Shown: positions 14,932 to 52,605 of the stretch, in pieces
How positions within the stretch are numbered: position 1 is the stretch's first letter
How the letters are laid out: each line of letters starts with the position of its first letter
NCBI RefSeq assembly: GCF_013128195.2
Contig: NZ_CP053452.2
Coordinates: forward strand, 5,642,001 to 5,706,000
Length of the DNA stretch: 64,000 bases
Direction: 5' to 3'
Source: Frigoriglobus tundricola
GTDB taxonomy: Bacteria; Planctomycetota; Planctomycetia; Gemmatales; Gemmataceae
Translations under genes and position numbers: made by a program
Notes under the pieces: generated by a model
Databases searched by the model: none
The model's input: only the letters and a program-made list of their open reading frames with translations
What the model was told of the DNA's origin: nothing

Positions 14932-15113
14932 GACGGTGCCTCCGGGAAGATCGGAGAGGTGTCACAGTGTCGCACGACGGGCGGCGCAAGGGAAGGACTT
15001 ATTCAACCGCGAACGGCTCCGCGTGTCTTCCTCCCGCATTCCGATATTCCGCGCGCCGACCCCGGCGTGAGCGGGGAGCCATCAGGTAGAACATCTCACG
15101 GGAGGACTTCCAG

Positions 15114-18100
15114 ATGGACACCGCCCGCTTGCTGCGCCTCGCGCGCGACACCGCCCCGCCGACCGGAGCCGATTCGACGGACACGGACCTGCTCCACCGT
15201 TATGCGGTGGAGCATGACGAGGCCGCGTTCGCCGAACTCGTCCGGCGGAACGGGCCGCACGTCCTCCGGGCCTGTCGGCACGTCCTCGGTGAGGCGGGTG
15301 CCGAGGACGCGTTCCAGGCCACGTTCCTGCTCCTGGCTCGATCTGCCGGACGGCTCGCGCGGCCGGGCTCTCTGGCCGGGTGGTGGCTCCACGCGGCCGC
15401 CGTTCGGATCGCGCGCGCGCGCGGGCCGGGCGGAGGGCCGGCGGCGGGAGTACGAACGCGCCGCCCGCACGGCGCCGATCGCCCGGGACGCCCTGACCTG
15501 GCGCGAGGTCCGTGAGGTCCTCGACCGGGAACTCGCCGCGCTGCCCGAGAAGTACCGCGTCCCGCTCGTGTTGTGCTACCTCCAGGAACTGACCTACGAG
15601 GAGGCGGCCCGTCGGGCCGGGTGTCCCGTCGGAGCGCTCCGCGGTCGCCTGGAGCGGGGGAAAGAACGGCTCCGTAAGCGGCTCGCGGAGTACGGGCTGC
15701 CGTTGGCGGCCCCGGCCCTCCTTCTCGGCCCCCCGGCGCCGGTTTCTGCCGCCCTCGCAAGCGCCACGCTCGACACGGTGCGGACGGTTGCGAACGGCGG
15801 CCGAGTGCCCGCGGCCATCGCCGGACTGGTCGGCCCCAGGACGGGCTTCCGTGTTGCCTTCCTCGCTCCGCTTGCCGTCGCTCTCACCGCCCTCGGGGCC
15901 GTTTTGGCCGGGAGCGAACGTCCGGGGGCTGTGGCCGAGCCGCCCGCGCCGCCCGCTCGCGAGGTCGCTGGACCGCCCGCGCGAGTCGATCCGTTTGGCG
16001 ACCCGCTTCCGGACGGGGGCCTCGTTCGGCTCGGGACGATGCGCTCGCGGGCCGGCATCCACACCTTCGGCCTTCGCGCCGACGGGACCGTGGTCACCGT
16101 TGGCCCGTTATTCGGTGGTGGGAAGTGGGACCAGAAAATCGGCGTTCGGACGTGGGGCCCGAGGAGCGACGCATCCGAAGCCCCGGTGCCGCTCCCGCTC
16201 AAAGAATATAACCCGGCCCTCTTCCCCCAGGTGTCGCTCGACGGGCGGTTCGTCGCCGCCGGCACAACGGCCAAAGTGGTCGTTTGGGAGTGGACCTCGC
16301 GCGCGAAAGAAGTTGCCGCGTTCCCGATCGAGCGCGCGCGTGGCCTCGCCCTGTCCCCGGACGGGAGCCGGTTGGCGGTGGCGCACGAGAAGGTCGCGCT
16401 GTGCGATGTCCGCACGGGCGCGGTCCGCGAGTTAGAACCGGGTCCGGCCGAAGTGCTCTGCTTCTCCGGCGACGGGCGGCGCCTCATGGCCGGTTCATCG
16501 GAGCGGGTGGTCGTCTGGGACGTGGCGACGGGTAAGCGGCTGGCCGACCACAAGGGTGAAACACTCGGTGGCGGCGTCCCGAGCGCCCTGGACCACACCG
16601 GGTCCGTGATTGCCGCCCTCCCGCACGGGTGGGGGGAGGACCGGGTTCGCTTTCTGGACGCGATCACCGGTGAACCGGTCGCGGGGCTGACCGGCCCTGA
16701 AGTGGAGATTTACGGTGGGGTCGTGACGTTCGCCCCGGACGGGAAGACGGTCCTTCTGGGCAACAAGGACGGGGTGTGCTGGTGGGACCCTGCCGCCGGC
16801 AAGCTGATCCGCCAGTTCGACGCCCCCTCCTCAACCGCCGCGTGGTTCGAACGCCAACAGGCCCGGCTCACCCCGGACGGAAAGGTGCTTGTCTGGCACA
16901 CCCAACAGGCGCTGTTCCGGTGGGACGCGACGACCGGCAAGCCGCTGTTCCCACAGGCCCAGGGGACCGGGCACACGGAAGAAGTGAAGGCCCTGGACAT
17001 TTCGCCCGACGGCACGCGGGTGGCGACCCTGGGGGGCGAGCCCGGTGTGCGGGTGTGGGACGCGACGACCGGTCGGCAACTGTTCGTCCTCCCCTCCAGC
17101 ATTCCGACGGACGTTGACAATGCGGACTTCAGCCCCGACGGGCGGTTCCTTTTCACCCTGAGCCGGAAGCGCGACGCGGTTGTGAAGTGGGACGTAGCGA
17201 CGGGCAAGGAGATCACCCGGTACGTGGTGGGAACGCCCGAGGAGCTGAGAACCAGCACCCTGTGTGCGTTCCGGTTGGCCCCCAATGGTCGTATCGTTCA
17301 CGGGGTGTTGGATGATCTGTTCAGGAAAAGCGCGCGGATGGTGCAGTGGGACGCCGAGTCGGGCCGCATCCTCTCCGAAAGAACCGTGACCAATCGCGGG
17401 CAGGAAGATGGGTATCAGGGAAGCTTCTCGCCCGACTGTCGCTGGTTCGCTGGGGCCGAGTCGTTGTTCCCCGTCGAGCTCGGCCCGACGGCTAAAGCCA
17501 TCGCTCTGGAAAAGGCACGGCCGATCGGGATGTACGTTTTCTCGTCGGACAGCCGGCTCCTCGCATTGACAGGCTGGAGCGTGGAAGCGCCCGCCACCCC
17601 CTCGGATCCGGCGTGTCATGCGGTGGTGCTGGACGTTGCCACGGGTGCGAAGGTCTTTGAGATGCCGGTTCGGTGGTGCACCGGGTTCGCGTTCCACCCG
17701 GACGGCCGGTCGCTGGCCGGCGCCGAGTCGGACGGGTTGGTGTTCTGGGACCTGGTGACGGGCAAGGAGTACGCCCGGCGGAAGGCCCACGCGCGGCACC
17801 CGATCGACCCGCAGCCGTTCGCGCGGGTCATGCGGTACTTTCCCGACGGGACGAAGCTGGTGACCGGGCACCACGACACGACCGCGCTGATCTGGGAGGC
17901 ACCCGTCCGGCCGAAGGGCGCGAAGGTCCTGGACGAAAAGGGGCGAGCCGCTTTGTGGGACGACCTTGCGTCGCCGGACGGGGCGAAAGGGTGGGGCGCC
18001 GTGTGGGGGCTGGCCGATGACCCCGGCGCGGTCGCGTTCCTTCGCGGGAAGGTGACACCGGTCCCGGCGCTCCCGGCGAAGGAGTTCGACCCGCTCTTAG

Positions 18101-18435
18101 CGGACCTCGGTTCCGAAGCGTTTGCCACACGCGAGGCGGCAACGGAGAAGTTGAAGGCGGCCCTCGATCGCGCGACGGGGCCGCTCCGCGCCGCGTTGAA
18201 GGCCGAGCTGACGGCGGAACAGAAACTCCGAGTCGAGCAGCTCCTGGCGGCCTGGCCGGGTGCGGACCGGCGCCCCCTGACCGGCGACCGGTTGCGGGGC
18301 GTCCGGGCGGTGGCCGCTCTGGAACTGGCGGGAACAGCCGGGGCTCGGAAGCTGCTGGCGGAGTTGGCCGCAGGGGCTGCTGACGCGACCATCACGCGCG
18401 AAGCCAAATTCGCATTGGGGCGCGTGAGCCGATGA
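15114..18435 (+). CDS. ECF sigma factor fused to WD40 repeats (apparent frameshift near 15411-15425)
   Basis: Planctomycete-type sigma factor fusion, about 1107 residues if repaired. Region 2 lies in the first frame (DLLHRYAVEHDEAAFAELVR, GAEDAFQATFLLLARSA), ending at GWWLHAAAVRIARAR. Region 4 continues in the +1 frame (REVLDRELAALPEKYRVPLV, then LTYEEAARRAGCPVGALRGR). The switch falls in a (GC)6-GGG tract; one extra GC, or one G fewer, restores one frame. After region 4 come one transmembrane helix (about 240-262), a long WD40 domain with many SPDG and VWDxxTG repeats, and a C-terminal HEAT-like helical tail. GGGAGGA precedes the ATG. Likely a membrane-tethered, self-regulated sigma factor; sequencing error, decay or phase variation are all possible. 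Confidence 0.8.
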
Positions 18436-18584: not shown

Positions 18585-19259
18585 TCAGCTCCCGCGGCTC
18601 GGGCGATTGATCCCGATACCCGGGTCATACGAATACAGGGTGCCCAGTATTTTGCTGAGCAGACCGAGGCGCTCGTTCCGCGTCATGTCGGGGAACTCGT
18701 GCTCAAGAAAAGCCAGGATCATGCTTTGCTTTTCGGCGCCCGGATTCGATTTGACCTCGGCGCACGCCTTCGCGCGCTCCCGGCTCGCGACGTTGCAGCA
18801 GTGGTTGGTGCGCCCGGGATAGCCGTGATAAATCCGCAGGGTCCCGTTGACCTGGATTTCGACGACCAGTCCCCCCAGAATCCAGGACGTCCAATTGGGA
18901 CTGGAATTGACCCTCCACGCCTCGTCCGCGGTCTTCCCGTGGAATTGGCCGCCCTCCAAAACGATCGGCTTGCCGCAGTGGTCGCACAGAAGGGGGCCGC
19001 CATCGGTCCCCATTGTCGCCAGGGGCCGAACCGGCGTCTGGCCGCGACCGGCTGTGGCGCGGGCCACCTGCTCGGCATAGACCTGATGCGCTTCAAGCTC
19101 CTGGACCTTCTGGAGGTACGCCTGGTAGATTTCTCGGGCCTCGGTGTGGTCCCGTGCTTCTTTGGGTTCCGGTTTCGCTCTTGGGGGCTTCGCGTCTTTT
19201 TCCTCAACTCCAATTTCGTGCAATCGGGCATCGACGCACGGCATGCCGAGCTGATACAT
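18585..19259 (-). CDS. Uncharacterised protein with CxxC motif, 5' end abutting an IS630 element
   Basis: A 224-residue product of unknown function. A coiled-coil, charged N-terminal part (EARDHTEAREIYQAYLQKVQ) is followed by LLCDHCGKPIVLEGGQFHGK, a CxxC pair that may bind zinc, then TLRIYHGYPGRTNHCCNVAS and an acidic C-terminus. The first ATG (19259-19257) is supplied by the last bases of the IS630-type element; the first host ATG is at 19244. The piece at 20451-20561 may be its original 5' end, but joining the two across a TA target leaves them one base out of frame. Confidence 0.6.
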   Translation of the reverse strand: MYQLGMPCVDARLHEIGVEEKDAKPPRAKPEPKEARDHTEAREIYQAYLQKVQELEAHQVYAEQVARATAGRGQTPVRPLATMGTDGGPLLCDHCGKPIVLEGGQFHGKTADEAWRVNSSPNWTSWILGGLVVEIQVNGTLRIYHGYPGRTNHCCNVASRERAKACAEVKSNPGAEKQSMILAFLEHEFPDMTRNERLGLLSKILGTLYSYDPGIGINRPSRGS

Positions 19260-19397
19260 GAACCCACCGACGCAGTCCCATCCTCTAACCGGAGGTAGCC
19301 CACTGCTTTAGAGGCCACTGCCATTATCCGCATCCAGCTGCCCGCCGCCGAGGCGGAACGACTCGACGCCCTGTTCCGCTCGACGGACGACCCGAAG

Positions 19398-19859
19398 TTG
19401 CGGGTCCGTCTCCAGATCGTGCTGATGGCCCATCGGGGGCGTGCCCGCCAGGACATCGCCACCGACTTGGGGGTCCACCGCCGGACCGTCACCCGGTGGG
19501 TCAACGCGTACTGCGACGACGGACTCGACGGGCTGCGGCCCAAGAAGGCCAAGGGCACCCCCTGCAAGATCCCCAAGGCCCTCGCCGAGGAGATCAAGCG
19601 TTGGGTGATCAAGGGGCCGGCCGAGGAGGGGCTCGACCGTGCCAACTGGACGCACGCGGAATTGGCCGATCATCTGCTCAAGACCAAGGGCATCCGCACC
19701 TCCCGTAGCGCCATGCAACGGTTCTGCTCGGGGATCGACATCCGCCTGTATCGGCCCACGTACCGCCACGACCGGGGCGACCCGGTCAAGCAGGCCCAGG
19801 CCCGGGAGGATCTGGCCGACCTGGGAAAAGGGCCGCGGCCGGTGAACTCGTCCTCTTGA
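19398..19859 (+). CDS. IS630 family transposase, N-terminal ORF
   Basis: Helix-turn-helix part of the transposase: IVLMAHRGRARQDIATDLGV, then HRRTVTRWVNAYCDDGLDGL and the linker helix WTHAELADHLLKTKGIRTSR. TTG 19398 is the listed start, but family-like sequence (IRIQLPAAEAERLDALFRST) extends upstream in frame to about 19323, after an in-frame TAG at 19296. Translation may therefore begin at a rarer codon such as ATT 19323 after GGAGG at 19291-19295. It ends in TGA within the overlap with the DDE-domain ORF. Confidence 0.85.
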   Translation: MRVRLQIVLMAHRGRARQDIATDLGVHRRTVTRWVNAYCDDGLDGLRPKKAKGTPCKIPKALAEEIKRWVIKGPAEEGLDRANWTHAELADHLLKTKGIRTSRSAMQRFCSGIDIRLYRPTYRHDRGDPVKQAQAREDLADLGKGPRPVNSSS

Positions 19860-20428
19860 GCCAAGACGAGGCCCGCTTCCCGATGGTCCCGACGTTGGCC
19901 GCAACGCTCGGGGTCAAGGGTCACCGGCCGATCGTGGGAACCCGCGATTGCAAGGATCTCCTGTACGTGCTCGCCGTCGTCAATTGGGTCACCGCGGGCG
20001 TTCACGCCAACACGCTGGAAAGTTCGGCGAATGCCAAGAAGAAGACCGGGTTGAGCAAGACCCGTCGCATGCAAGAGGCGTTTGCGGCTCACCTGCGGCA
20101 CATCGGTCGCATGTACCCGCGGGAGAAATATCCACGTGTCGTGGTACTGATCGACAACGCCCCGTGGCACCGGGGGAAGCCGATCGACGAGGCGATGCGC
20201 GAGAACCCGCACCTGGAGTTCCAGCGTCTGCCCAGCTACAGCCCGCAGTTGAACCCGATCGAGCGGTTCTGGAAGAAGCTCCGCCGCCGGGCCACACACA
20301 ACCGCCTGTTCGACACGTTGGCGGACCTGAAGGCGTCGATCCGGGCCAGCCTCTGTTACTTCCAGGCCGTCCGACATAAGGTCAAAAGCCTCATCGAGGG
20401 ACGGCCCAAGCGGAAGACCAGCAAATGA
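19856..20428 (+). CDS. IS630 family transposase, DDE catalytic ORF
   Basis: Catalytic part, 190 residues: the first Asp in SQDEARFPMVP, the second in VVVLIDNAPWHRGK, the Glu in PQLNPIERFWKKLRR. The TTG start overlaps the stop of the upstream ORF by four bases; a -1 frameshift would give one full-length transposase of about 340 residues. C-terminal basic tail EGRPKRKTSK. Confidence 0.88.
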   Translation: MSQDEARFPMVPTLAATLGVKGHRPIVGTRDCKDLLYVLAVVNWVTAGVHANTLESSANAKKKTGLSKTRRMQEAFAAHLRHIGRMYPREKYPRVVVLIDNAPWHRGKPIDEAMRENPHLEFQRLPSYSPQLNPIERFWKKLRRRATHNRLFDTLADLKASIRASLCYFQAVRHKVKSLIEGRPKRKTSK

Positions 20429-20450
20429 GACAGCTTCGGTGGGTTCATGT

Positions 20451-20561
20451 ATCAGAGCGGATCTGGTTGATTTCCCGCAAATCGACCTGTTGAGCTACAA
20501 GGGGCTGGCCCGGGTAATCGTCCTGTAACATCCGGAGCTTGTGAAGCAGCTCGTTTGGCAT
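20451..20561 (-). pseudogene. 5' gene fragment truncated by the IS630 element
   Basis: Starts MPNELLHKLRMLQDDYPGQP with GGAGA upstream, runs through QQVDLREINQIRSD and then enters the inverted repeat, stopping at TGA 20445-20447. It has the look of a real N-terminus. It may be the start of the gene now at 18585-19259, but a precise excision would leave a one-base frame difference. Confidence 0.5.
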
Positions 20562-28065: not shown

Positions 28066-29235
28066 ATGGGGCTCATGCCCGACCGCCATGCCATTAAAGT
28101 GCTGCTCGTGGACGACCAACCGATGGTCGGGGAGACGGTGCGCCGGATGCTCGCCGACGAACCGGGCGTCGAGTTCCGCCACTGCCCGGACCCGGCCGCG
28201 GCCATCGACGCCGCCAACGAGTTCAAGCCCACCGTCATCCTGCAAGACCTCGTGATGCCCGACATCGACGGGCTCCAGTTGGTCAAATACTTCCGCGCCA
28301 ACGCGGCGACGCGCGAGACCCCGCTCGTCGTGCTCTCCAGTAAGGAAGAGCCCGTCGTGAAGGCGCGGGCGTTCGCGCTCGGGGCCAACGACTACATGGT
28401 GAAACTGCCCGACCGACTCGAGGTCGTCGCCCGCGTCAAGTACCACTCCCGCGGCTACGTCGCCCTCCTGGAGCGCAACGAGGCGTACCGCCAACTGGCC
28501 GAAACACAGCGCGAGATGGCGGCCGAACTCGCCCGCGCGGCCCGGTACGTCCAGTCGCTGCTCCCGGCACAACTCTCGACCGGGCCGATCCGGATCGCGT
28601 GGCAGTTCGTGCCGTCCACCCAGCTCGCCGGCGACATGTTCGGCTACCACTGGATCGACAAGGACCACTTCGCCATCTACCTGCTCGACGTGAGCGGGCA
28701 CGGCGTCGGCTCGGCCCTGCTCGCGGTGTCCGCCGGGAACGTGCTGTCCGCCAACTCGATCCCCGGCGCCGACCCGCGCGACCCCGGCGCGGTTGTCACC
28801 CGGCTCAACGACATGTTCCAGATGGAGCGCCAGGACGGCAAATACTTCACCATCTGGTACGGCGTGTACCGCCCGGCGGACCGGGTGCTCGCCTACTGCA
28901 ACGCCGGGCACCCGCCGGCCCTCCTTCTGTCTGATGGCACGCTCCATTCGCTCGAAGCCGACGCGCCCGCCGTCGGGATGATGCCGGACCTGCCGTACGA
29001 CACCCGCACGGTTCCCGTGGCGGCGGGCGCGCGGCTCCTCGTGTACAGCGACGGCATCATGGAGATCGAGAAGGCGGACGGGGAGATGTGGCCGTTCGAA
29101 GACTTCCTGGCCCGGATCTCGAGCGACCTCCGCGCCGAGGGCGATCTGATCGCCCGGCACCTGGAGTTCGTCCGCGAGTTAGGCGCACAACACGTACTGA
29201 GTGACGACTTTTCGATGATGGATGTGCGGGTCTGA
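28066..29235 (+). CDS. WspR-type receiver fused to PP2C/SpoIIE phosphatase (output of a Wsp-like system)
   Basis: 389 residues. Residues 9-125 are a receiver domain that closely follows WspR: VLLVDDQPMVGETVRRML, ILQDLVMPDIDG (phospho-acceptor Asp), VVLSSKEE, ANDYMVKLPD, and the linker YHSRGYVALLERNEAYRQL. In Pseudomonas WspR this linker leads to GGDEF; here residues 190-388 are a PP2C/SpoIIE phosphatase: STQLAGDMFGYHW, LLDVSGHGVGSALLA, YCNAGHPPALLL, LLVYSDGIMEIE. ATG 28066 is used; ATG 28075 is an alternative. It is the first gene of the wsp-like cluster, 131 bp before wspA. Predicted role: phosphorylation-controlled Ser/Thr phosphatase, probably acting on an anti-sigma antagonist. Confidence 0.9.
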   Translation: MGLMPDRHAIKVLLVDDQPMVGETVRRMLADEPGVEFRHCPDPAAAIDAANEFKPTVILQDLVMPDIDGLQLVKYFRANAATRETPLVVLSSKEEPVVKARAFALGANDYMVKLPDRLEVVARVKYHSRGYVALLERNEAYRQLAETQREMAAELARAARYVQSLLPAQLSTGPIRIAWQFVPSTQLAGDMFGYHWIDKDHFAIYLLDVSGHGVGSALLAVSAGNVLSANSIPGADPRDPGAVVTRLNDMFQMERQDGKYFTIWYGVYRPADRVLAYCNAGHPPALLLSDGTLHSLEADAPAVGMMPDLPYDTRTVPVAAGARLLVYSDGIMEIEKADGEMWPFEDFLARISSDLRAEGDLIARHLEFVRELGAQHVLSDDFSMMDVRV

Positions 29236-29366
29236 CCGCTTATTCCGACCACGTGATCTGGGAACATTGGGTAAATTCGGTTGTTCGGGCGAAGGTGCTG
29301 GACCGCTCGGCCGGAGCGGGTACTATCGCCTTGCCGGCCCCCCGCTTCACACACTGGCACGCTCCT

Positions 29367-31022
29367 ATGATCCGCCTCCGCGACGTGTCGCTGCGCACGA
29401 AGCTCCACACCCTCCTCATCGCGTACACGCTCACGTTAGCTGCCGTCCTGGTAGTGAGGGTGTACACGATCAACCGCTACTCCATCGGCGGCCCCACTTA
29501 CACCGTCTTGAGCCAGCGCAAAGAGCTGATCGGCGAAATGTTGCCGCCGCCGCTCCTGGTCGGGCGCCCGTACCTCGCCCTTCAAGAGCTGGAAACGGCG
29601 ACCGACCCCGCCGAGATCCGCCGGCTCACCGGGCTGTACAAAGAATTCGAGGCCCAATACTTCCAGCGCCGGGAATACTGGCTATCGAAACTGCCCCGCG
29701 AGGACCCCACGCGGCAGGCCATCGAGGTCACGGCCCACCTTTCGGCCGTCGAGTTCTTCCGGCTCGCGAACGAGGAGTACCTTCCGAATTTGAGGGGCGA
29801 CGCCGCCGCGCGGGCGAAAGCGATGAAGGTGCTGAGGGACCAACTCGGCCCGACGTTCCGGGAACAGAACCGCGTCCTCCAGGAGGCGCTCAAGAAGGAA
29901 GAGGCCGCGGTGGCGGCCAGCGAGGCGCAGACCATGTCCGACCTCGCGTTCTGGCAGAGCGTCAGCCTCGGTTTCGCGGTCCTGGCGCTCACGTTCTTCG
30001 GCGTGGTCGGGTGGCTCATCGTCCGGAGCATCGCGCGGTCCGCGGACCTCCTGCTCGTCCGCGTGCGCCAGATGACCAGCGGGGCCGCGGACCTCACGGT
30101 CCGCCTCGCGGTGGAAGGAAAGGACGAAATGGGCCAACTCGCCGAGGGGATCAACGCCGTGGTCGCCAAGATCCAGGGCATCGTCGGCAAGGCCCGCGAG
30201 TCCAGCCTGCAACTCCTGTCGACCGCGTCCCAGATCGCCTCCACGGCGCGGAGCCAGGAGCAGACGGTGAACAACCTGAGCGCCTCGACCACCCAGGTCG
30301 CCGCGAGCGTCCGGGAGGTGTCCGCGACGAGCAAGGACCTGTCCGGCACCATGAACGAGGTGAGCCAGACCGCCACCCACGCGGCCGAACTCGCCACCCG
30401 CGGGCGGGACAACACCACCCGGATGGCGACCGAAATGAAGCAACTGGTGGAATCCACCACCAGCGTGTCCACCAAACTGAATATGATCCGGGAGAAGGCG
30501 GACAGCATCAACGCGGTCGTCACGACGATCACGAAGGTCGCGGACCAGACCAACCTGCTGTCCATCAACGCCGCCATCGAGGCGGAGAAGGCCGGCGAGT
30601 ACGGCCGCGGGTTCCTCGTGGTGGCGCGCGAGATCCGCCGCCTCGCGGACCAGACCGCCGTGGCGACGCTGGACATCGAAACGATGGTGAAGCAGATGCA
30701 GGACGCGGTGTCCGCCGGCGTGATGCAGATGGACAAGTTCGCCGACGAGGTGCGGTCCGGCGTCGGCCAGGTGACGAAGATCAATCAGATGACGTGGGAG
30801 ATCATCAACGAGGTCCAGAGCCTGAGCGGCCGGTTCCAACTGGTGAACGAGGGGATGCGGAACCAGACGACCGGCGCGCAGCAGATCAACGAGGCGATGG
30901 GCCAGATCGCGGAGGCGACGCACCGGTCGGCGCAGTCGATCAAGGAGTTCGAGCGCGCCACCACCACCCTCCGGGCGTCCGTCGAGGGGCTGAACCAGGA
31001 GATCGCGCAGTTCAAAACCTGA
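29367..31022 (+). CDS. wspA: Methyl-accepting chemotaxis protein, WspA-like
   Basis: 551-residue receptor. TM1 (LHTLLIAYTLTLAAVLVVRV), a periplasmic helical domain of about 150 residues, TM2 (SLGFAVLALTFFGVVGWLIV), HAMP, then a signalling domain. The tip is not the classical chemotaxis sequence but DQTNLLSINAAIEAEKAGEY, then GRGFLVVAREIRRLADQTAV, followed by ATLDIETMVKQMQDAV, which is diagnostic of WspA surface sensors. ATG 29367 is preferred to one 114 bases upstream because the basic/TM start fits. Confidence 0.9.
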   Translation: MIRLRDVSLRTKLHTLLIAYTLTLAAVLVVRVYTINRYSIGGPTYTVLSQRKELIGEMLPPPLLVGRPYLALQELETATDPAEIRRLTGLYKEFEAQYFQRREYWLSKLPREDPTRQAIEVTAHLSAVEFFRLANEEYLPNLRGDAAARAKAMKVLRDQLGPTFREQNRVLQEALKKEEAAVAASEAQTMSDLAFWQSVSLGFAVLALTFFGVVGWLIVRSIARSADLLLVRVRQMTSGAADLTVRLAVEGKDEMGQLAEGINAVVAKIQGIVGKARESSLQLLSTASQIASTARSQEQTVNNLSASTTQVAASVREVSATSKDLSGTMNEVSQTATHAAELATRGRDNTTRMATEMKQLVESTTSVSTKLNMIREKADSINAVVTTITKVADQTNLLSINAAIEAEKAGEYGRGFLVVAREIRRLADQTAVATLDIETMVKQMQDAVSAGVMQMDKFADEVRSGVGQVTKINQMTWEIINEVQSLSGRFQLVNEGMRNQTTGAQQINEAMGQIAEATHRSAQSIKEFERATTTLRASVEGLNQEIAQFKT

Positions 31023-31036
31023 ACGCGCAAGAGATT

Positions 31037-31232
31037 TCACCACAAAGGCACAAAGATCTCACAAAGGAAACAGAAGATCGATGAGGGAACCAGATTCATA
31101 AGGCATTCTGACGAGAAGAATCGAGGTCGGGTGGCAGGGGGCTGTTTCTTGTCACAACCCTCTCCTTCTGTGTTCTTTGTGCCCCTTTGTGCAATCTTTT
31201 CCCCCGCTGCACGGGGACCCTCTTTGTGGTGA
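31037..31232. repeat. Nested inverted repeats between wspA and wspB
   Basis: TCACCACAAAG (31037-31047) pairs with 31222-31232 and GGCACAAAGA (31047-31056) with 31174-31183, framing the wspA-wspB gap. The A+T content and CACAAAGGCACAAAG composition differ strongly from neighbouring genes, suggesting a dispersed repeat that landed inside the operon. Confidence 0.6.
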
Positions 31233-31260
31233 GACTTTCTTTCTTTTCCGACGGCTCAAC

Positions 31261-31722
31261 ATGCTCGGGCTCGTCTTCCAGGTCGGTGCGAACAAGGTCG
31301 CGGTGGACGTGCGCCGCGTCCGCGAGGTGGTGCCGCGCGTCCGGCTCGCGGACGTCCACGGCGGGCCGCCGTGGGTCGCGGGCGTGTTCGTGTACCGCGG
31401 GCGGGTGGTGCCGGTGATCGACCTCCACGCGCTCGTCGGCGTGGGGGCGTGCCCGCCGCACCTGAGCAGCCGCATCATCCTGTTCCCGTACCCCCCGGAC
31501 GTGCCCGACTCGCTCGTCGGGCTGCTCGCGACCCAGGTGGCGGAGATCCGCGAAATCAAATCCGAAGTCGCGCACCCGCTTCCCGGCCCGGCCGGCCGAA
31601 CCGGGTTGGGGCCGGCCCTCGCGGACGGCGAGGGCGTCCTCCGCCTGCTGGACCCCGACTGGTTGCTCTCCCAGGTCGCGGCCGGGGCGGGCGGGCTGAT
31701 CGCAACGGGGTTCGCGCCGTGA
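31261..31722 (+). CDS. wspB: CheW-type coupling protein, WspB-like
   Basis: 153-residue CheW domain linking receptor and kinase: MLGLVFQVGANKVAVDVRRV, VAGVFVYRGRVVPVIDLHAL, RIILFPYP, VGLLATQVAEIREIKS. Start taken at the ATG of the CheW domain; an ATG/TTG-type extension upstream would run into the repeat. Its TGA overlaps the GTG of the next gene (GTGA), so translation is coupled. Confidence 0.85.
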   Translation: MLGLVFQVGANKVAVDVRRVREVVPRVRLADVHGGPPWVAGVFVYRGRVVPVIDLHALVGVGACPPHLSSRIILFPYPPDVPDSLVGLLATQVAEIREIKSEVAHPLPGPAGRTGLGPALADGEGVLRLLDPDWLLSQVAAGAGGLIATGFAP

Positions 31723-32926
31723 CCCTCCGCACCATCGATTCCGTCGTGCGCGAGCGCCTGGGGCTGGACCCGTCCACGCTCGGGGCCAACGTCCTCGACC
31801 GCGCCGCCGCCGCGCGGATGCTCGCCTGCGGACTCAGCGACCCGGCCGTGTACGCCGCCCGGCTGATGGCCGAACCGGCCGAGCGCGAGGTCCTGGCCGC
31901 GGACCTGGCGGTGTCCGAAACGTGGTTCTTCCGCGGCGGCCGGGCGCTATTCGATCGGCTGGCCGGGTTCGTGGCCGGGCGCGCGACCGGCACCCCGGCG
32001 CGCGTCCTCAGCATCCCGTGCAGCACCGGCGAGGAGCCGTACTCGCTGGCCATCGCGCTCCACGAACGGTCCCTCTCGGCCACGGACTTTGTCATCGATG
32101 CCGTCGATCTGTCGGAGCGGGCGCTGGCCCGCGCGACGGCCGCCCGGTACGGCGCGTTCGCGTTTCGCGAAGCCGGCCCGGACATGCGCCCGGCGTACTT
32201 CCGCCCGGTGGCGGACCAGTGGGAACTGCTCCCGAACTTGCGCGCCGCCGTCCGCTTCCGGGCCGGCAACCTGACCGATCCGCTCTTCCTCGCGGGCGAG
32301 CGGAGTTACGACCTCATCCTGTGCCGCAACCTGTTCATCTACCTGACGCCCGACGCGCGCGTCCGGGCGCTGGCGAACTTCGACCGGTTGCTCGCGCCCG
32401 ACGGGCGGTTGTGCGTGACCCACGGCGAGGCCGACCGGTTGCCCCCCGACCGGTTCCAGCCCGACGGACCGACCGAAACCGGCATCTACCGCCGCACCGG
32501 AGCGAGCGGCGGCGTTCCGCCGCGAACCGTTCCGCCCGTCCCGCCCGTCCCGGAAACCGTTGCGCGCCCGCGCCGCCACCGTCGCCACCGGCCCCGGCAG
32601 CGGCCCCCAGCCGTGACGCCACGCTGGCTGCGGCCCGGGCGCTGGCGGACGCCGGCCGCCTGGACGACGCCCGCGCGATGTGTGAACGCCTGCTCCGCGC
32701 CCGCTCCACGGACGCCGACGCGCTGACGCTCCTCGGGGTCGTCCACCTCGCGGCCGGGCGCGCGGACGAGGCGTTCGACACGTTCCGCAAAGCGCTGTAC
32801 CTCGTACCCGATCACGCCGAGGCGCTGGCGCACATGCTGGGCCTGTACGAGCGGCGCGGGGACGCGGCCGGCGCCGCGGCGCTGCGCCGCCGGCTCGCTA
32901 GGGCGACCCGTCCGGAGGGCACATGA
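31719..32926 (+). CDS. wspC: CheR-type methyltransferase with TPR, WspC-like (apparent frameshift near 32562-32570)
   Basis: SAM-dependent glutamate methyltransferase for the WspA receptor. GTG start overlapping wspB. First frame: VSETWFFRGGRALFD, RVLSIPCSTGEEPYSLAIAL, DLILCRNLFIYL, ending in a Pro/Arg-rich linker. The TPR tail (LDDARAMCERLLRARSTDAD, LTLLGVVHLAAGRADEAFDT) lies in a different frame that ends at 32926 and overlaps wspD by ATGA. One missing base in the CGCGCCCGCG stretch, or a surplus GC, explains the shift; the repaired length is about 402 residues. CheR plus TPR is the WspC layout. Confidence 0.82.
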
Positions 32927-33597
32927 GTACGACGGCACTCCCCCTGCACACGATCGACCCCACCGAGCAGTGCTGGAACCGCATCGGGGTCCGGGGCGAC
33001 CGCTCGTGCCCGGAACTGGCGAAGGTCACCCACTGCAACAACTGCCCGGTGTTCGCCGCCGCCGGCCGGCGGTTCCTGGACGCGCCGTCCCCCGTCGGTT
33101 ACCTGGAGGAGTGGACCACCCGGCTCGCCGCCCGCGACGACGACCGCGAGGGGGACCAGACGAGCGTCTTGGTCTTCCGGCTCGGTGACGAGTGGCTCGC
33201 GCTGCCGGTGGCCGTTCTCGTGGAAGTGACCCGCCCGCGGGTCGTTCACCGCGTCCCGCACCGCGGGGGGCTGCTCGCCGGACTGGTGAACATCCGCGGC
33301 GAGTTGAACCTGTGCGTCCGGATGGACCAGTTCCTGGGCGTCGAGGGCGGGGCCGAACCCGATCCCGAGCAGCGCCGCCTGGTGGTGGTCCGCCACGCCA
33401 CCGACCGGTGGGTGTTCGCGGCCGACGAGGTGGATCAGGTGCACCGGGTGCTGCTGCCGGACCTCTCGGCCGCCGCGCCGACGCTGGCGCGGGCGCACGC
33501 GCGAATGACCCGCGGGGTGTTCCCGCACGCCGGCCGCTCGGTCGGCCTGCTCGACGACACGCGGCTGTTCCAGACCCTCCGGGAGCGGCTGCGATGA
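32923..33597 (+). CDS. wspD: CheW-type coupling protein, WspD-like
   Basis: 224 residues. The N-terminal module CWNRIGVRGDRSCPELAKVT, HCNNCPVFAAAGRRFLDAP is the cysteine-containing signature that separates WspD from ordinary CheW; the CheW domain follows (VLVFRLGDEWLALPVAVLVE, LAGLVNIRGELNLCVRM). ATGA overlaps at both ends place it in a tightly coupled block with wspC and wspE. Confidence 0.9.
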   Translation: MSTTALPLHTIDPTEQCWNRIGVRGDRSCPELAKVTHCNNCPVFAAAGRRFLDAPSPVGYLEEWTTRLAARDDDREGDQTSVLVFRLGDEWLALPVAVLVEVTRPRVVHRVPHRGGLLAGLVNIRGELNLCVRMDQFLGVEGGAEPDPEQRRLVVVRHATDRWVFAADEVDQVHRVLLPDLSAAAPTLARAHARMTRGVFPHAGRSVGLLDDTRLFQTLRERLR

Positions 33598-36318
33598 CCG
33601 GCATCGATCCCGCCATGTTCGAGCTGTTCCGCGAGGAGGTGAAGGCGCACGCCGACACCCTCGCGGCCGGACTGGTCGCCGTCGAGGCGAACCCGACCGA
33701 CCCGGCGCGGCTCGAATCGCTCATGCGGGCGGCGCACTCGATTAAGGGCGCCGCCCGGATCATCAACATCGACACGGCCGTGCGGCTCGCGCACGTGATG
33801 GAGGACGCCCTCGTCGCCGCGCAAGACGGCCGGATTCGCTTGACCTCCGCCGACATCGATACGCTACTGAAGGGGTCGGACGTTCTCGCGGGGCTGGCGG
33901 CGCTGGCTCCGGGCACGGTGTCCGCGTGGGAAGCGACCAACGCCGCGGCGGTAGCCGCGCTGGAGCCGCAGTTCGTTGCAATGGCGCGCGGCGGACCGGT
34001 CTCCGAAGAACCTCCCCCCCCAACCCGCCCGCTTTCGAGCCGACGGGCATCCCAACCGAGCCGTTCCCGCTCGGCGCCGAGCACTCGATGCTCGATCTGT
34101 TTCGTGAGGAACTTCGCGGATACCTTCGGACCGTCTCGAAGTCGCTCGACGCGCTGGCAACCGATCCGACCGCGTCCGAACCGGTGCTGGACGCGCTGAA
34201 GCAGATTCGCGGGGCCGCGCGACTGGTGAAGTGTGCCCCCGTGGCCGCTCTCGCCACCGCGGTCAGCGACTTCGTCCGTGCGGCGCGCGAAGGCCGGTGC
34301 GAACTGTCACCGCCCGCGCTCGACTGGTCGCGCTACGCGGTCGACCTGCTCGCCGGCGCGCTCGTGACCGACGACGAGACGTTCCCCACCTGGGCCGAAT
34401 CGGCGGCGGGGGCATTCGCGACCGCTACCGAGACGTTTGCACGCGCTGTGGTGAGCGGAAGACCCACCGCCCCAGCTCCCCTCGGTTCACTCCCCGGTAC
34501 TGTCAGCGGAGCTTCTCGCGGGCCGGGGGGGTAGGTTCTTCGCCCTCCCCGCCGTCCCCAACTCCCCCGCCCGCGGAGTTGGTGGTGCGGGTCGCGGCGC
34601 AGAGCCTCAACCGCCTGATGGGCCTGGCCGGCGAGTCGCTCGTGCAGGCGCGGTGGCTGCCGTCCTTCTCCACCGCGCTTCTCAAGCTGCGAAAGCAACA
34701 CGACCGACTCGCGTCCCTGTTGGACGCTGTGTACCACACCACGGCCGGCGGGGTGCCCCCGGACCAGGTGGCCGACCTGATCTCCGACACCCGCCGCCAG
34801 TGGGCCGCGTACCGCGAAGAACTGAACGCCAAGACGGCCGCCTTCGACGAGCACGCGGCCCGCGCCGAGGACCTCAACGTCCGGCTCTACCGCGAGGTCA
34901 TCGCCAGCCGCATGAGGCCCTTCGGCGACGGCGCGCACGGCCTGCCCCGTCTCGTTCGCGACATGGCCCGGGCGCTCGGCAAGGAGGCGCGGCTGGTCGC
35001 CGTGGGGGACCGCACCGAAGTCGATCGCGACATCCTGGAGAAGCTCGAGTCGCCGCTCTCGCACCTCGTTCGAAATGCGGTCGATCACGGACTGGAAATG
35101 CCCGCCGCGCGCGCCGCCGCGGGTAAGGCGGCGGCCGGCACGATCACGCTGGAGGCCCGGCACCGCGCCGGCATGTTACTCGTCACCGTGGCCGACGACG
35201 GCGGCGGCATCGATTTGAACAAGCTCCGCAAGAAGATCGTGGACCGCGGGATGAACACCGCCGACGTGGTCGCGCGGTTCACGGAAGCGGAGCTACTCGA
35301 GTTCCTGTTCCTGCCCGGTTTCAGCACGGCGGCGGCGGTGACCGAGTTCTCCGGCCGCGGGGTCGGGCTGGACGTGGTTCAGGACACCGTCCGCCGCGTG
35401 GGCGGCAACGTCCGCATCACCACCGTTGCGGGGAAGGGGACCACGTTCCACCTGCAACTGCCGCTCACGCTCTCCGTCATCCGGGCCGTGGTGGTGGACG
35501 TGGGGGGCGAACCCTACGCGTTCCCGCACACGCGCATCGACCGGCTCATCCGGGTCCGCCGGGACGAGGTGCGGTCGATCGAGCACCGCCAGTTCGTCAC
35601 CGTGGACGGCCTCAACGTCGGGCTGGTCCTCGCCGGCCAGTTGCTCGACATCCCGGCCGCCACGCCGGTCGGAACCGAGTTCCCGGTGGTCCTCCTGTCG
35701 GACGGGGTCGGCGAGTACGGCCTGGTGGTGGACGCGTTCCACGGCGAACAGGACCTGGTCGTCCGGCCGCTCGACCCGCGCCTGGGCAAGGTGCCCAACC
35801 TGAGCGCCGCCGCGATCCTCGACGACGGCGCGCCGGTCCTGATAGTCGATGTGGAGGACCTGCTGCGGTCGATGGACCAGTTCATCCAGACCGGCTCGCT
35901 CGTGCGGTGCGAGACGCGCGCCACCGGGACGGGGCGCAAGAAGCGCGTGCTCGTCGTGGACGACTCCATCACCGTCCGCGAGGTCGAGCGCCAGTTGCTC
36001 CTGCACAAGGGGTACGAGGTCGCGGTCGCCGTGGACGGCGTGGACGGCTGGAACAAGGTACGGGCCGAGCCGTACGATATGCTGGTGAGCGACATCGACA
36101 TGCCGCGCATGAACGGCCTCCAGCTCGTACAAGCGGTGCGGGCCGACGAGCGGCTCCGCGACCTGCCGGTCATCATCGTGTCGTACAAGGAGCGCGAGGA
36201 GGACCGCATCCGCGGGCTCGAGGTCGGGGCGAACTCGTACCTGACCAAGAGCAGCTTCCACGACAACCGGTTCATCGAAACCGTGGTGGACCTAATCGGC
36301 CCGGCGGACGAGGTGTAG
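33594..36318 (+). CDS. wspE: Hybrid CheA histidine kinase-receiver, WspE-like (two apparent homopolymer frameshifts)
   Basis: About 908 residues if repaired. HPt1: MRAAHSIKGAARIINIDTAV with phospho-His. A C8 tract (34014-34021) shifts the frame. HPt2-like: MLDLFREELRGYLRTV, LDALKQIRGAARLVKC, with Gln in place of the His, so degenerate. A G7 tract (34525-34531) shifts again; one extra C and one extra G restore a single frame. Then dimerisation, HATPase (HLVRNAVDHGLE, VADDGGGIDLNK, FSGRGVGLDVVQDTVRRVGG), CheW-like domain and a C-terminal receiver (VLVVDDSITVREVE, LVSDIDMPRMNGLQ, ANSYLTKSSF). It should phosphorylate the PP2C response regulator and WspF. The stop is TAG. Confidence 0.85.
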
Positions 36319-36688: not shown

Positions 36689-37714
36689 ATGCGTATCGGG
36701 ATCGTGAACGATCTGGCTCTGGCGCGGGAGGTGCTGCGGCGCGTGGTGGCGGCAGTGCCCGGTTACTCCGTTGCGTGGATGGCGGAAGACGGCGCCGAGG
36801 CGGTCGTCCGGACCGCCGCCGACCGGCCCAATGTCGTTCTGATGGACCTCATCATGCCGCGCCTGGACGGCGTCGAGGCCACGCGGCAGATCATGGCGCA
36901 ATCGCCGTGCCCCGTCGTGGTCGTCACGGCAAGTGTGGCGACCAACTACGCGATGGCGTGTCGGGCGATGGGCGCCGGAGCGCTGGACGCGGTGGACACC
37001 CCGGTGCTCGGCCCCGGCGGGGCGGTCCAGAACGCGGACAAGCTCCTCACCCGTCTGGCCCATTTGCGGGCCGCACTCGCCGGCATCGTCGGGTTCGGGT
37101 CCGCAACGGCCCCCAGGCCGTGTGCGGCCCCGATCGAGACACCGTCACTGGTCCTGCTCGGTGCGTCCACCGGCGGCCCGGAAGCCCTGGCGACGGTGCT
37201 GAGTGCGTTCCCGGCCGATCTGCCCGCGGCGGTCCTCATCAGCCAGCACATCGGGGCCGACTTCGCGCACGGACTGGTTCAGCAACTGGCGGCGCGGTGC
37301 AAACTGCCCGTCCGGGCCGCGCACGCCGGCGACGCGCCGACCGCGGGCGTCGTCCACGTCGCGGTGAGCAACGACCACATGGAACTCGGCCCCGACCGCT
37401 CGCTCCAGTACACGCCGCACCCGCGGGAGCACCCGTACCGGCCGTCGGTGGACGTGCTGTTCACCAGCGGCGCGGTCCGCGCCTCGCGGCCGGGCGTCGC
37501 GGCGCTGCTCACCGGCATGCACACCGACGGCGCCGAGGGCCTGTTGCGCCTGCGCATGGCCGGCTGGCACACCATCGCGCAGGACGAGGCGACGAGCGTC
37601 GTTTACGGCATGCCGAAGGCGGCCGCGGAGAAGCGCGCCGCGGTGGAGGTGCTCCCGCTACAACACATCGGTGACAGCCTCGTCGCGCGGCTCCTCGCGC
37701 TGCGCCGGCGGTGA
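36689..37714 (+). CDS. wspF: CheB-type protein-glutamate methylesterase, WspF-like
   Basis: 341 residues. Receiver (VLMDLIMPRLDGVEATRQIM) then methylesterase with the Ser-His-Asp set: LLGASTGGPEAL, VLISQHIGADFAHGL, LLTGMHTDGAEGLLRLRMAG, AQDEATSVVYGMPKAA. It removes methyl groups from WspA and resets the pathway; loss of WspF locks the Pseudomonas system on. Start at MRIGIVNDLALAREV with AGGG eight bases upstream. It is separated from wspE by 370 bp, so it may have its own promoter. Confidence 0.9.
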   Translation: MRIGIVNDLALAREVLRRVVAAVPGYSVAWMAEDGAEAVVRTAADRPNVVLMDLIMPRLDGVEATRQIMAQSPCPVVVVTASVATNYAMACRAMGAGALDAVDTPVLGPGGAVQNADKLLTRLAHLRAALAGIVGFGSATAPRPCAAPIETPSLVLLGASTGGPEALATVLSAFPADLPAAVLISQHIGADFAHGLVQQLAARCKLPVRAAHAGDAPTAGVVHVAVSNDHMELGPDRSLQYTPHPREHPYRPSVDVLFTSGAVRASRPGVAALLTGMHTDGAEGLLRLRMAGWHTIAQDEATSVVYGMPKAAAEKRAAVEVLPLQHIGDSLVARLLALRRR

Positions 37715-52286: not shown

Positions 52287-52605
52287 GCCCGTCAGAAGTG
52301 GTACCGAAGCGAGGAGGTTTCAAGTACCCGTCATTCTCCGTTCCCGGGTCTTCGGTTGCGGGTGGTCGGTCGGCCCGCTCGCCTCGCACCTTCGACCCGG
52401 AACAACAGAGCCTGTCGGAGCTTGAAACTCCTGGCGTTCTCGTGGAAGAGCACCTGTCGCGGGTGAGCGCTTTGCCCCCTCCCGCCCCACCGAAAGAGTG
52501 GGGAACCGGGCAACAGCGGTCAGTCCAGATGGGGCCGCTTCCGCGCGAATCGGTCCGCGGCCGGTGTTGCGGTTTCTTCTCTCCGTTTCATTGGAGGTCT
52601 CTCCC
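52287..52605. other. 319-bp gap before DUF1559 gene
   Basis: No gene seen. GTTCCCGGGTC (52340-52350) can pair with GACCCGGAAC (52394-52403) with one bulge. Probably leader or promoter sequence for the downstream gene. Confidence 0.45.

What the first reader, a model, noticed from the sequence alone, without database searches (positions are those of the whole stretch)
33594..36318. wspE reading frame broken at a C8 and a G7 tract
HPt1, HPt2 and the kinase core lie in three frames. One extra C in 34014-34021 and one extra G in 34525-34531 restore a single 908-residue protein. Homopolymer length errors in the assembly are the simplest cause, but slippage at these tracts would also switch the whole sensory pathway on and off.
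Basis: partly seen in the sequence, partly recalled or inferred. Interest (0 to 1): 0.55.

Follow-up and report, generated by a model that had tools for sequence, protein, structure and literature searches.

The report
Broken sensor-kinase gene, probably sequencing error
A gene for a chemosensory control enzyme in a Gemmata-like bacterium is split into three reading frames at two runs of a single letter; intact relatives and a genome-wide check make a letter-counting error in the assembly the likeliest cause, with a truly broken gene second.

Summary
In detail: HPt1, an HPt2-like domain and the kinase core lie in three frames that change at or beside C8 (34014-34021) and G7 (34525-34531). All 15 genus-mates holding the whole gene keep one frame. 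At the second site G065, G068 and G072 carry the matching run with eight G and stay open. Both tracts lie in inverted copies of one dispersed Gemmata repeat, so they are repeat tails. The breaks are not confined to wspE: the CheR-TPR gene just upstream (one frame in 17 of 17 relatives) and a sigma/WD40 gene (15335-15449) also change frame. In this genome 11 of 34 model frame jumps sit at simple repeats, against 0 of 13 in two control genomes, which points to sparse length errors in the assembly. Against that, most long runs keep frame (28 of 32 of length seven, 9 of 10 of eight or more) and the CheR break is not at a homopolymer, so real decay stays open. MutS1 is intact. Nothing specific supports a phase switch. 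Assembly error 0.6; real frameshift 0.25; switch about 0.07.

The parts
33594..34022 (+). HPt1 segment, first frame (Pfam Hpt, phospho-His motif AHSIKG present)
34014..34021 (+). C8 tract; first frame change at or within about 20 nt of it
34004..34028 (-). copy of the dispersed 25-nt repeat motif, containing the C8 tract
   Evidence: pair I1
34022..34534 (+). HPt-like second domain, second frame, ends at TAG 34532; lacks the phospho-His
34458..34542 (+). dispersed Gemmata repeat copy in the HPt2-kinase linker (44 matches listed in own genome, this copy included)
34525..34531 (+). G7 tract, tail of the repeat; the matching run is eight long and in frame in G065, G068, G072
34518..34542 (+). second copy of the 25-nt motif, inverted relative to 34004-34028, 88% complementary
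   Evidence: pair I1
34534..36318 (+). kinase core: HATPase, CheW-like and receiver domains, third frame, no stops, up to 85% identical to relatives
31719..32926 (+). CheR methyltransferase with TPR (WspC-like), two frames, break at about 32510-32620; one frame in 17 of 17 relatives
32923..33597 (+). CheW-like (WspD-like), open, overlaps the start of the kinase gene
31177..31722 (+). CheW-like (WspB-like), open
29253..31022 (+). methyl-accepting receptor with HAMP (WspA-like), open
36689..37714 (+). CheB methylesterase with receiver (WspF-like), open
28066..29235 (+). receiver-SpoIIE phosphatase, likely output protein; open

Best explanation
The living cell most likely carries one uninterrupted CheA-type hybrid kinase gene (HPt, HPt-like, kinase core, CheW-like, receiver) in a Wsp-like chemosensory operon, and the three frames come from short length errors of the assembly at runs of identical letters in the proline-rich linkers. 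The linkers hold such runs because copies of a dispersed Gemmata palindromic repeat have settled in them; both tracts are tails of such copies. Shown: the frame changes, the intact relatives, the repeat copies, the genome-specific excess of frame jumps at simple repeats. Inferred: that the letters are missing from the file and not from the cell.
For: 15 of 15 relatives holding all three parts are in one frame (of 18 loci, G069 lacks the kinase end and G072 the HPt1 start, both in frame for what they hold, and G061 is unusable because of an N gap). G065, G068 and G072 have the orthologous G run followed by TAGGT with eight G, in frame (11 loci printed besides the window). The sequenced parts show no decay: kinase core up to 85% identical to relatives, no stops. 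Model frame jumps: this genome 34 in 0.986 Mb coding with 11 at simple repeats; controls G062 5 and G043 8 in 0.61 Mb with 0 at simple repeats; about 5% of random coding positions have a simple repeat within 110 nt. Jumps not at simple repeats run at 23, 17 and 26 per Mb in the three genomes, so the excess is the simple-repeat class. All 4 jumps at CG-dinucleotide runs go in the direction of a lost unit, and all three operon breaks in the direction of one lost base. MutS1 is full-length and open, so a mutator is not an easy alternative. Completeness 95.05 and contamination 4.47 for a two-contig genome, against 98-99 and 1-2 for the near-complete congeners G062, G043 and G063.
Against: 28 of 32 runs of seven and 9 of 10 runs of eight or more G/C in coding sequence keep the frame, so the error rate per run is at most about 10%, and two in one gene is unlucky. 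The run-length spectrum is not cut off (3 nines, 3 tens, 1 eleven in 1.264 Mb). Near-identical insertion-sequence copies show only one likely one-base difference at a G/C-rich site. Homopolymer-linked jumps are 3 in each direction, not one-sided. The CheR-TPR break has no run longer than C5 nearby. Seven is the commonest length of this repeat tail in the genus listing, also in other assemblies, so neither tract is short for its repeat family. Breaks cluster in this operon. The sequencing platform is unknown.
Confidence: 0.6

Rival explanations
1. Real frameshifts: the operon is recently inactivated, with slippage at the repeat-derived runs breaking wspE and a separate indel breaking the CheR-TPR gene.
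For: Breaks cluster: 3 of the 5 homology-supported breaks in 151 kb of compared sequence are in this operon. A 20-kb control stretch (13.7 kb covered) compared with dedicated relatives gave two sites, both judged wrong-frame matches. Most runs elsewhere keep frame. The CheR break is not at a run.
Against: Sensitivity was higher inside the window, where full-length relatives were fetched, than outside. All three breaks fall in linkers and none in a domain; receptor, both CheW, CheB and kinase core are open. The genome-wide simple-repeat class needs its own explanation.
Confidence: 0.25
2. Phase variation: the two runs change length in the population and switch the kinase on and off.
For: Runs of 7-8 G/C can slip. 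The G run is present at the same site in three relatives, and a C run in the same motif sits at a similar place after HPt1 in G063 (eight C, in frame) and G061 (A plus seven C) of 17 loci examined.
Against: Relatives show in-frame lengths only. The motif is a dispersed repeat; 1 of 19 tail copies sampled is flanked by coding sequence on both sides. MutS1 intact. Two runs that must both be right make a poor switch. No population data.
Confidence: 0.07
3. The broken gene still works: a split CheA acting in trans, or leaky slippage during transcription or translation at the runs making some full-length protein.
For: All domains are intact and the breaks lie in linkers; split CheA proteins that phosphorylate in trans are known (Rhodobacter CheA3/CheA4, recalled). 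Both frame changes are of the minus-one kind at slippery runs.
Against: No full-length relative shares the break (15 of 15 unbroken), so there is no conserved programmed site. No start site for the kinase part was tested.
Confidence: 0.06

Closest known systems
Wsp chemosensory system (WspE, Pseudomonas; passages of PMC6324874 read)
   Same: Order receptor, CheW, CheR, CheW, CheA/receiver hybrid, CheB.
   Different: Neighbouring output is a receiver-SpoIIE phosphatase; no diguanylate cyclase among the operon genes scanned. An extra HPt-like domain without phospho-His.
Gene-fragmenting indel errors of long-read assemblies (passages of PMC12007338 read)
   Same: Short indels at homopolymers, mostly false deletions, splitting genes. 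The paper reports 0.13 to 187 indels per 100 kb; the simple-repeat jumps here are about 1.1 per 100 kb of coding sequence (11 in 0.986 Mb).
   Different: Homopolymer jumps here are not one-sided (3 and 3); platform of this genome unknown.
Palindromic repeats inserted in reading frames, such as Rickettsia palindromic elements (recalled; search listing only)
   Same: A dispersed palindromic repeat read as part of a protein linker, in frame in several relatives.
   Different: Relation of sequences not tested; 0 of 9 core copies in the sample of this genome were flanked by coding sequence on both sides.

Membership tests
Wsp system | Gene order receptor, CheW, CheR-TPR, CheW, CheA-receiver, CheB | tested here: met
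Wsp system | Diguanylate cyclase output WspR | tested here: not met
   The adjacent output-type gene is receiver-SpoIIE; only the operon genes and a few neighbours were scanned, not the whole window
Long-read assembly error | Excess of frame breaks at simple repeats across the genome | tested here: met
   11 of 34 against 0 of 13 in controls
Long-read assembly error | Long runs commonly miscounted, or spectrum cut off | tested here: not met
   37 of 42 runs of seven or more keep frame; runs of 9-11 present
Long-read assembly error | Reads disagree with the assembly at the tract | not testable with these tools
   No reads held
Phase-variable contingency locus | Tract kept in relatives | tested here: inconclusive
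   G run in G065, G068, G072, a variant in G062 (11 loci printed); C run in the same motif in G063 and G061 of 17 loci
Phase-variable contingency locus | Length variants within a population | not testable with these tools
   One genome per species held
Programmed frameshift gene | Frame break and slippery site shared by relatives | tested here: not met
   15 of 15 full-length relatives in one frame
Pseudogene | Break fixed in all strains of the species | not testable with these tools
   No second strain held

The most novel reading that the evidence does not exclude
Copies of a mobile palindromic repeat brought G/C runs into the linkers of a chemosensory kinase and turned it into a slippable gene, so that run length decides between one long kinase and separate HPt and kinase pieces in this species.
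Probability: 0.07. Interest if true: 0.55.

Novelty: not a real feature. Interest (0 to 1): 0.15.

Why it matters
If an artefact, it warns that this two-contig genome carries scattered length errors (about eleven simple-repeat frame jumps per Mb of coding sequence), so other broken genes in it should be doubted. If real, it would be a case of a dispersed repeat making a signalling gene fragile at its linkers.

Tried and rejected
Mutator: MutS1 is intact in this genome; MutL was not tested. Run-length truncation: not seen (the first look on 464 kb had no nines and hinted at it, the larger sample removed the hint). IS-copy comparison for error rate: too few differences to decide, and no copies in the control samples. 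Inversion of HPt2 between the inverted motif copies: considered, no evidence. Apparent breaks at 19530, 20099 and 20996 are in insertion-sequence-like stretches; the first two lie in an element with a 99.9% identical copy elsewhere in the genome; not counted as gene breaks. Sites at 52433 and 56206 rest on one or two weak queries and were not counted. L187 sites 10588 and 17393-17476 were judged wrong-frame matches because protein identity (about 60%) is below DNA identity (about 80%); this is my judgement. Searches were earlier model settings; one search gave 21, 4 and 12 jumps on the smaller sample. Species identity was not established: G. algarum is 8.2 Mb (passages of PMC10817699), which does not fit 9.86 Mb.

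Paper searches: (listings). No paper on phase variation of a wspE-type gene was seen in the listings, which is not proof of absence.

Full report
What is there. The window is G000:C1:5642001-5706000 of a 9.86-Mb, two-contig genome whose genus-mates include Gemmata records. The gene at 33594-36318 reads as HPt (Pfam PF01627, 52 bits), an HPt-like domain (25 bits, at the cut-off), and HATPase, CheW-like and receiver domains. These three parts lie in three frames. The tracts C8 34014-34021 and G7 34525-34531 are as described.

Relatives. All 18 other genomes held for the genus have a match (19 of 19 with the window's own). In 18 fetched loci, 15 hold all three parts and all 15 are in one frame; G069 and G072 are cut by contig ends but in frame for what they hold; G061 is spoiled by an N gap. 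For G072, G061 and G069 one entry of that table is a cross-match (to the other HPt domain or to another receiver) and was not counted. The second domain has Lys or Gln in place of the phospho-accepting His in the window and in all 16 relatives aligned, whereas HPt1 keeps AHSIKG, so the second domain is probably structural.

The tracts are repeat tails. The stretch just before and including the G run is a dispersed repeat: 44 matches are listed in this genome, this copy included, of which 30 loci were aligned. The motif GAACCTAC-run-GGCC occurs in 13 of 19 genus genomes with zero hits for the reversed control; seven C is the commonest length in the listing, and this genome's 13 sites have none with eight. 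The two tracts of the finding are inverted copies of the same 25-nt motif, 88% complementary, 489 nt apart, flanking the second domain. Six of 18 relatives (G061, G062, G063, G068, G069, G074) have repeat motifs in the linkers of this gene by a simple motif count, and none was found in the domain segments of the 15 relatives where these were counted. In G065, G068 and G072 the G run at the same site is followed by TAGGT and is eight long, in frame with the kinase. After HPt1, the same motif with a C run sits at a similar place in G063 (eight C, in frame) and in G061 (A plus seven C), of 17 loci examined; the sequence beyond differs, so this does not say what length is right for the window.

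Is it only this gene? No. The CheR-TPR gene just upstream is in two frames in the window and in one frame in 17 of 17 relatives that hold both parts (of 18 loci); its break at about 32510-32620 has no run longer than C5. A sigma-factor/WD40 gene changes frame at about 15335-15449 beside a CG-dinucleotide run. Homology-supported breaks: this genome 5 sites in 151 kb compared, G062 0 in 85 kb, G043 3 in 66 kb. The window was better covered by full-length relatives than the rest, so its excess is partly one of sensitivity.

Genome-wide test. I trained a codon-usage frame model and counted same-strand frame jumps with an open upstream frame: 34 in 0.986 Mb coding here, 5 in 0.299 Mb (G062), 8 in 0.311 Mb (G043). 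Eleven of the 34 lie at a simple repeat against 0 of 13 in the controls (Fisher p about 0.02); about 5% of random coding positions have one within 110 nt (the junction windows are somewhat longer, and the binomial test there used 12%). One of the eleven is a trinucleotide repeat, which a lost unit would not shift. Jumps not at simple repeats have similar rates in all three genomes. The model counts the window's C8 and CG sites but not the G7 or CheR sites in that run. The sample is 1.264 Mb of 9.86 Mb in regular 20-kb stretches plus the window; the controls are 400 kb each, and their platforms are unknown.

Results against error. At G/C runs inside coding sequence, the frame is kept in 28 of 32 of length seven and 9 of 10 of length eight or more; the controls keep 9 of 9 and 7 of 7. 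The background of frame change at runs of four to six here is 3-5%. Runs of 9-11 exist. Copies of insertion sequences agree almost perfectly. Homopolymer-linked jumps go both ways, 3 and 3. So errors, if they are errors, are sparse.

Weighing. A sparse, genome-wide class of breaks at simple repeats, seen here and not in two congeners, with MutS1 intact and all domains otherwise sound, is best explained by residual length errors. The local cluster and the non-run break in CheR-TPR keep real decay at about one in four. A phase switch is not excluded but has nothing specific in its favour.

What the operon does (inferred). Receptor, two CheW, CheR-TPR, CheA-receiver and CheB form a Wsp-like module. 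The likely output is the receiver-SpoIIE phosphatase at 28066-29235. Seven further places in this genome match the kinase core at E below 1e-20, with open frames of 493 to 908 residues, so loss of this one need not end chemosensing.

Noticed in passing
31719-32926, break at about 32510-32620: CheR-TPR gene of the same operon is also in two frames; 17 of 17 relatives have it in one.
   Followed up: partly
14959-18435, break at about 15335-15449: Sigma-factor region 2 and the region 4/WD40 part lie in different frames beside a CG-dinucleotide run.
   Followed up: partly
34022-34534 and relatives L155-L172: The second HPt-like domain lacks the phospho-accepting His in the window and all 16 relatives aligned.
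   Followed up: partly
34458-34542; L155-L172 linkers: Dispersed palindromic repeats are read in frame as protein linkers of this kinase in several Gemmata relatives.
   Followed up: partly
L158 (G061): A loxP-like stretch (recognised from memory) and an N gap inside the kinase linker of the IIL30 assembly: likely 454 paired-end linker left in the record.
   Followed up: partly
L184 (G000:C1:5600001-5620000): Seven frame jumps within about 6 kb by the codon-usage model, over DNA collinear with three relatives; cause not resolved because loci could not be fetched.
   Followed up: no
19251-20456: Insertion-sequence-like element, 99.9% identical to a copy in L304.
   Followed up: no
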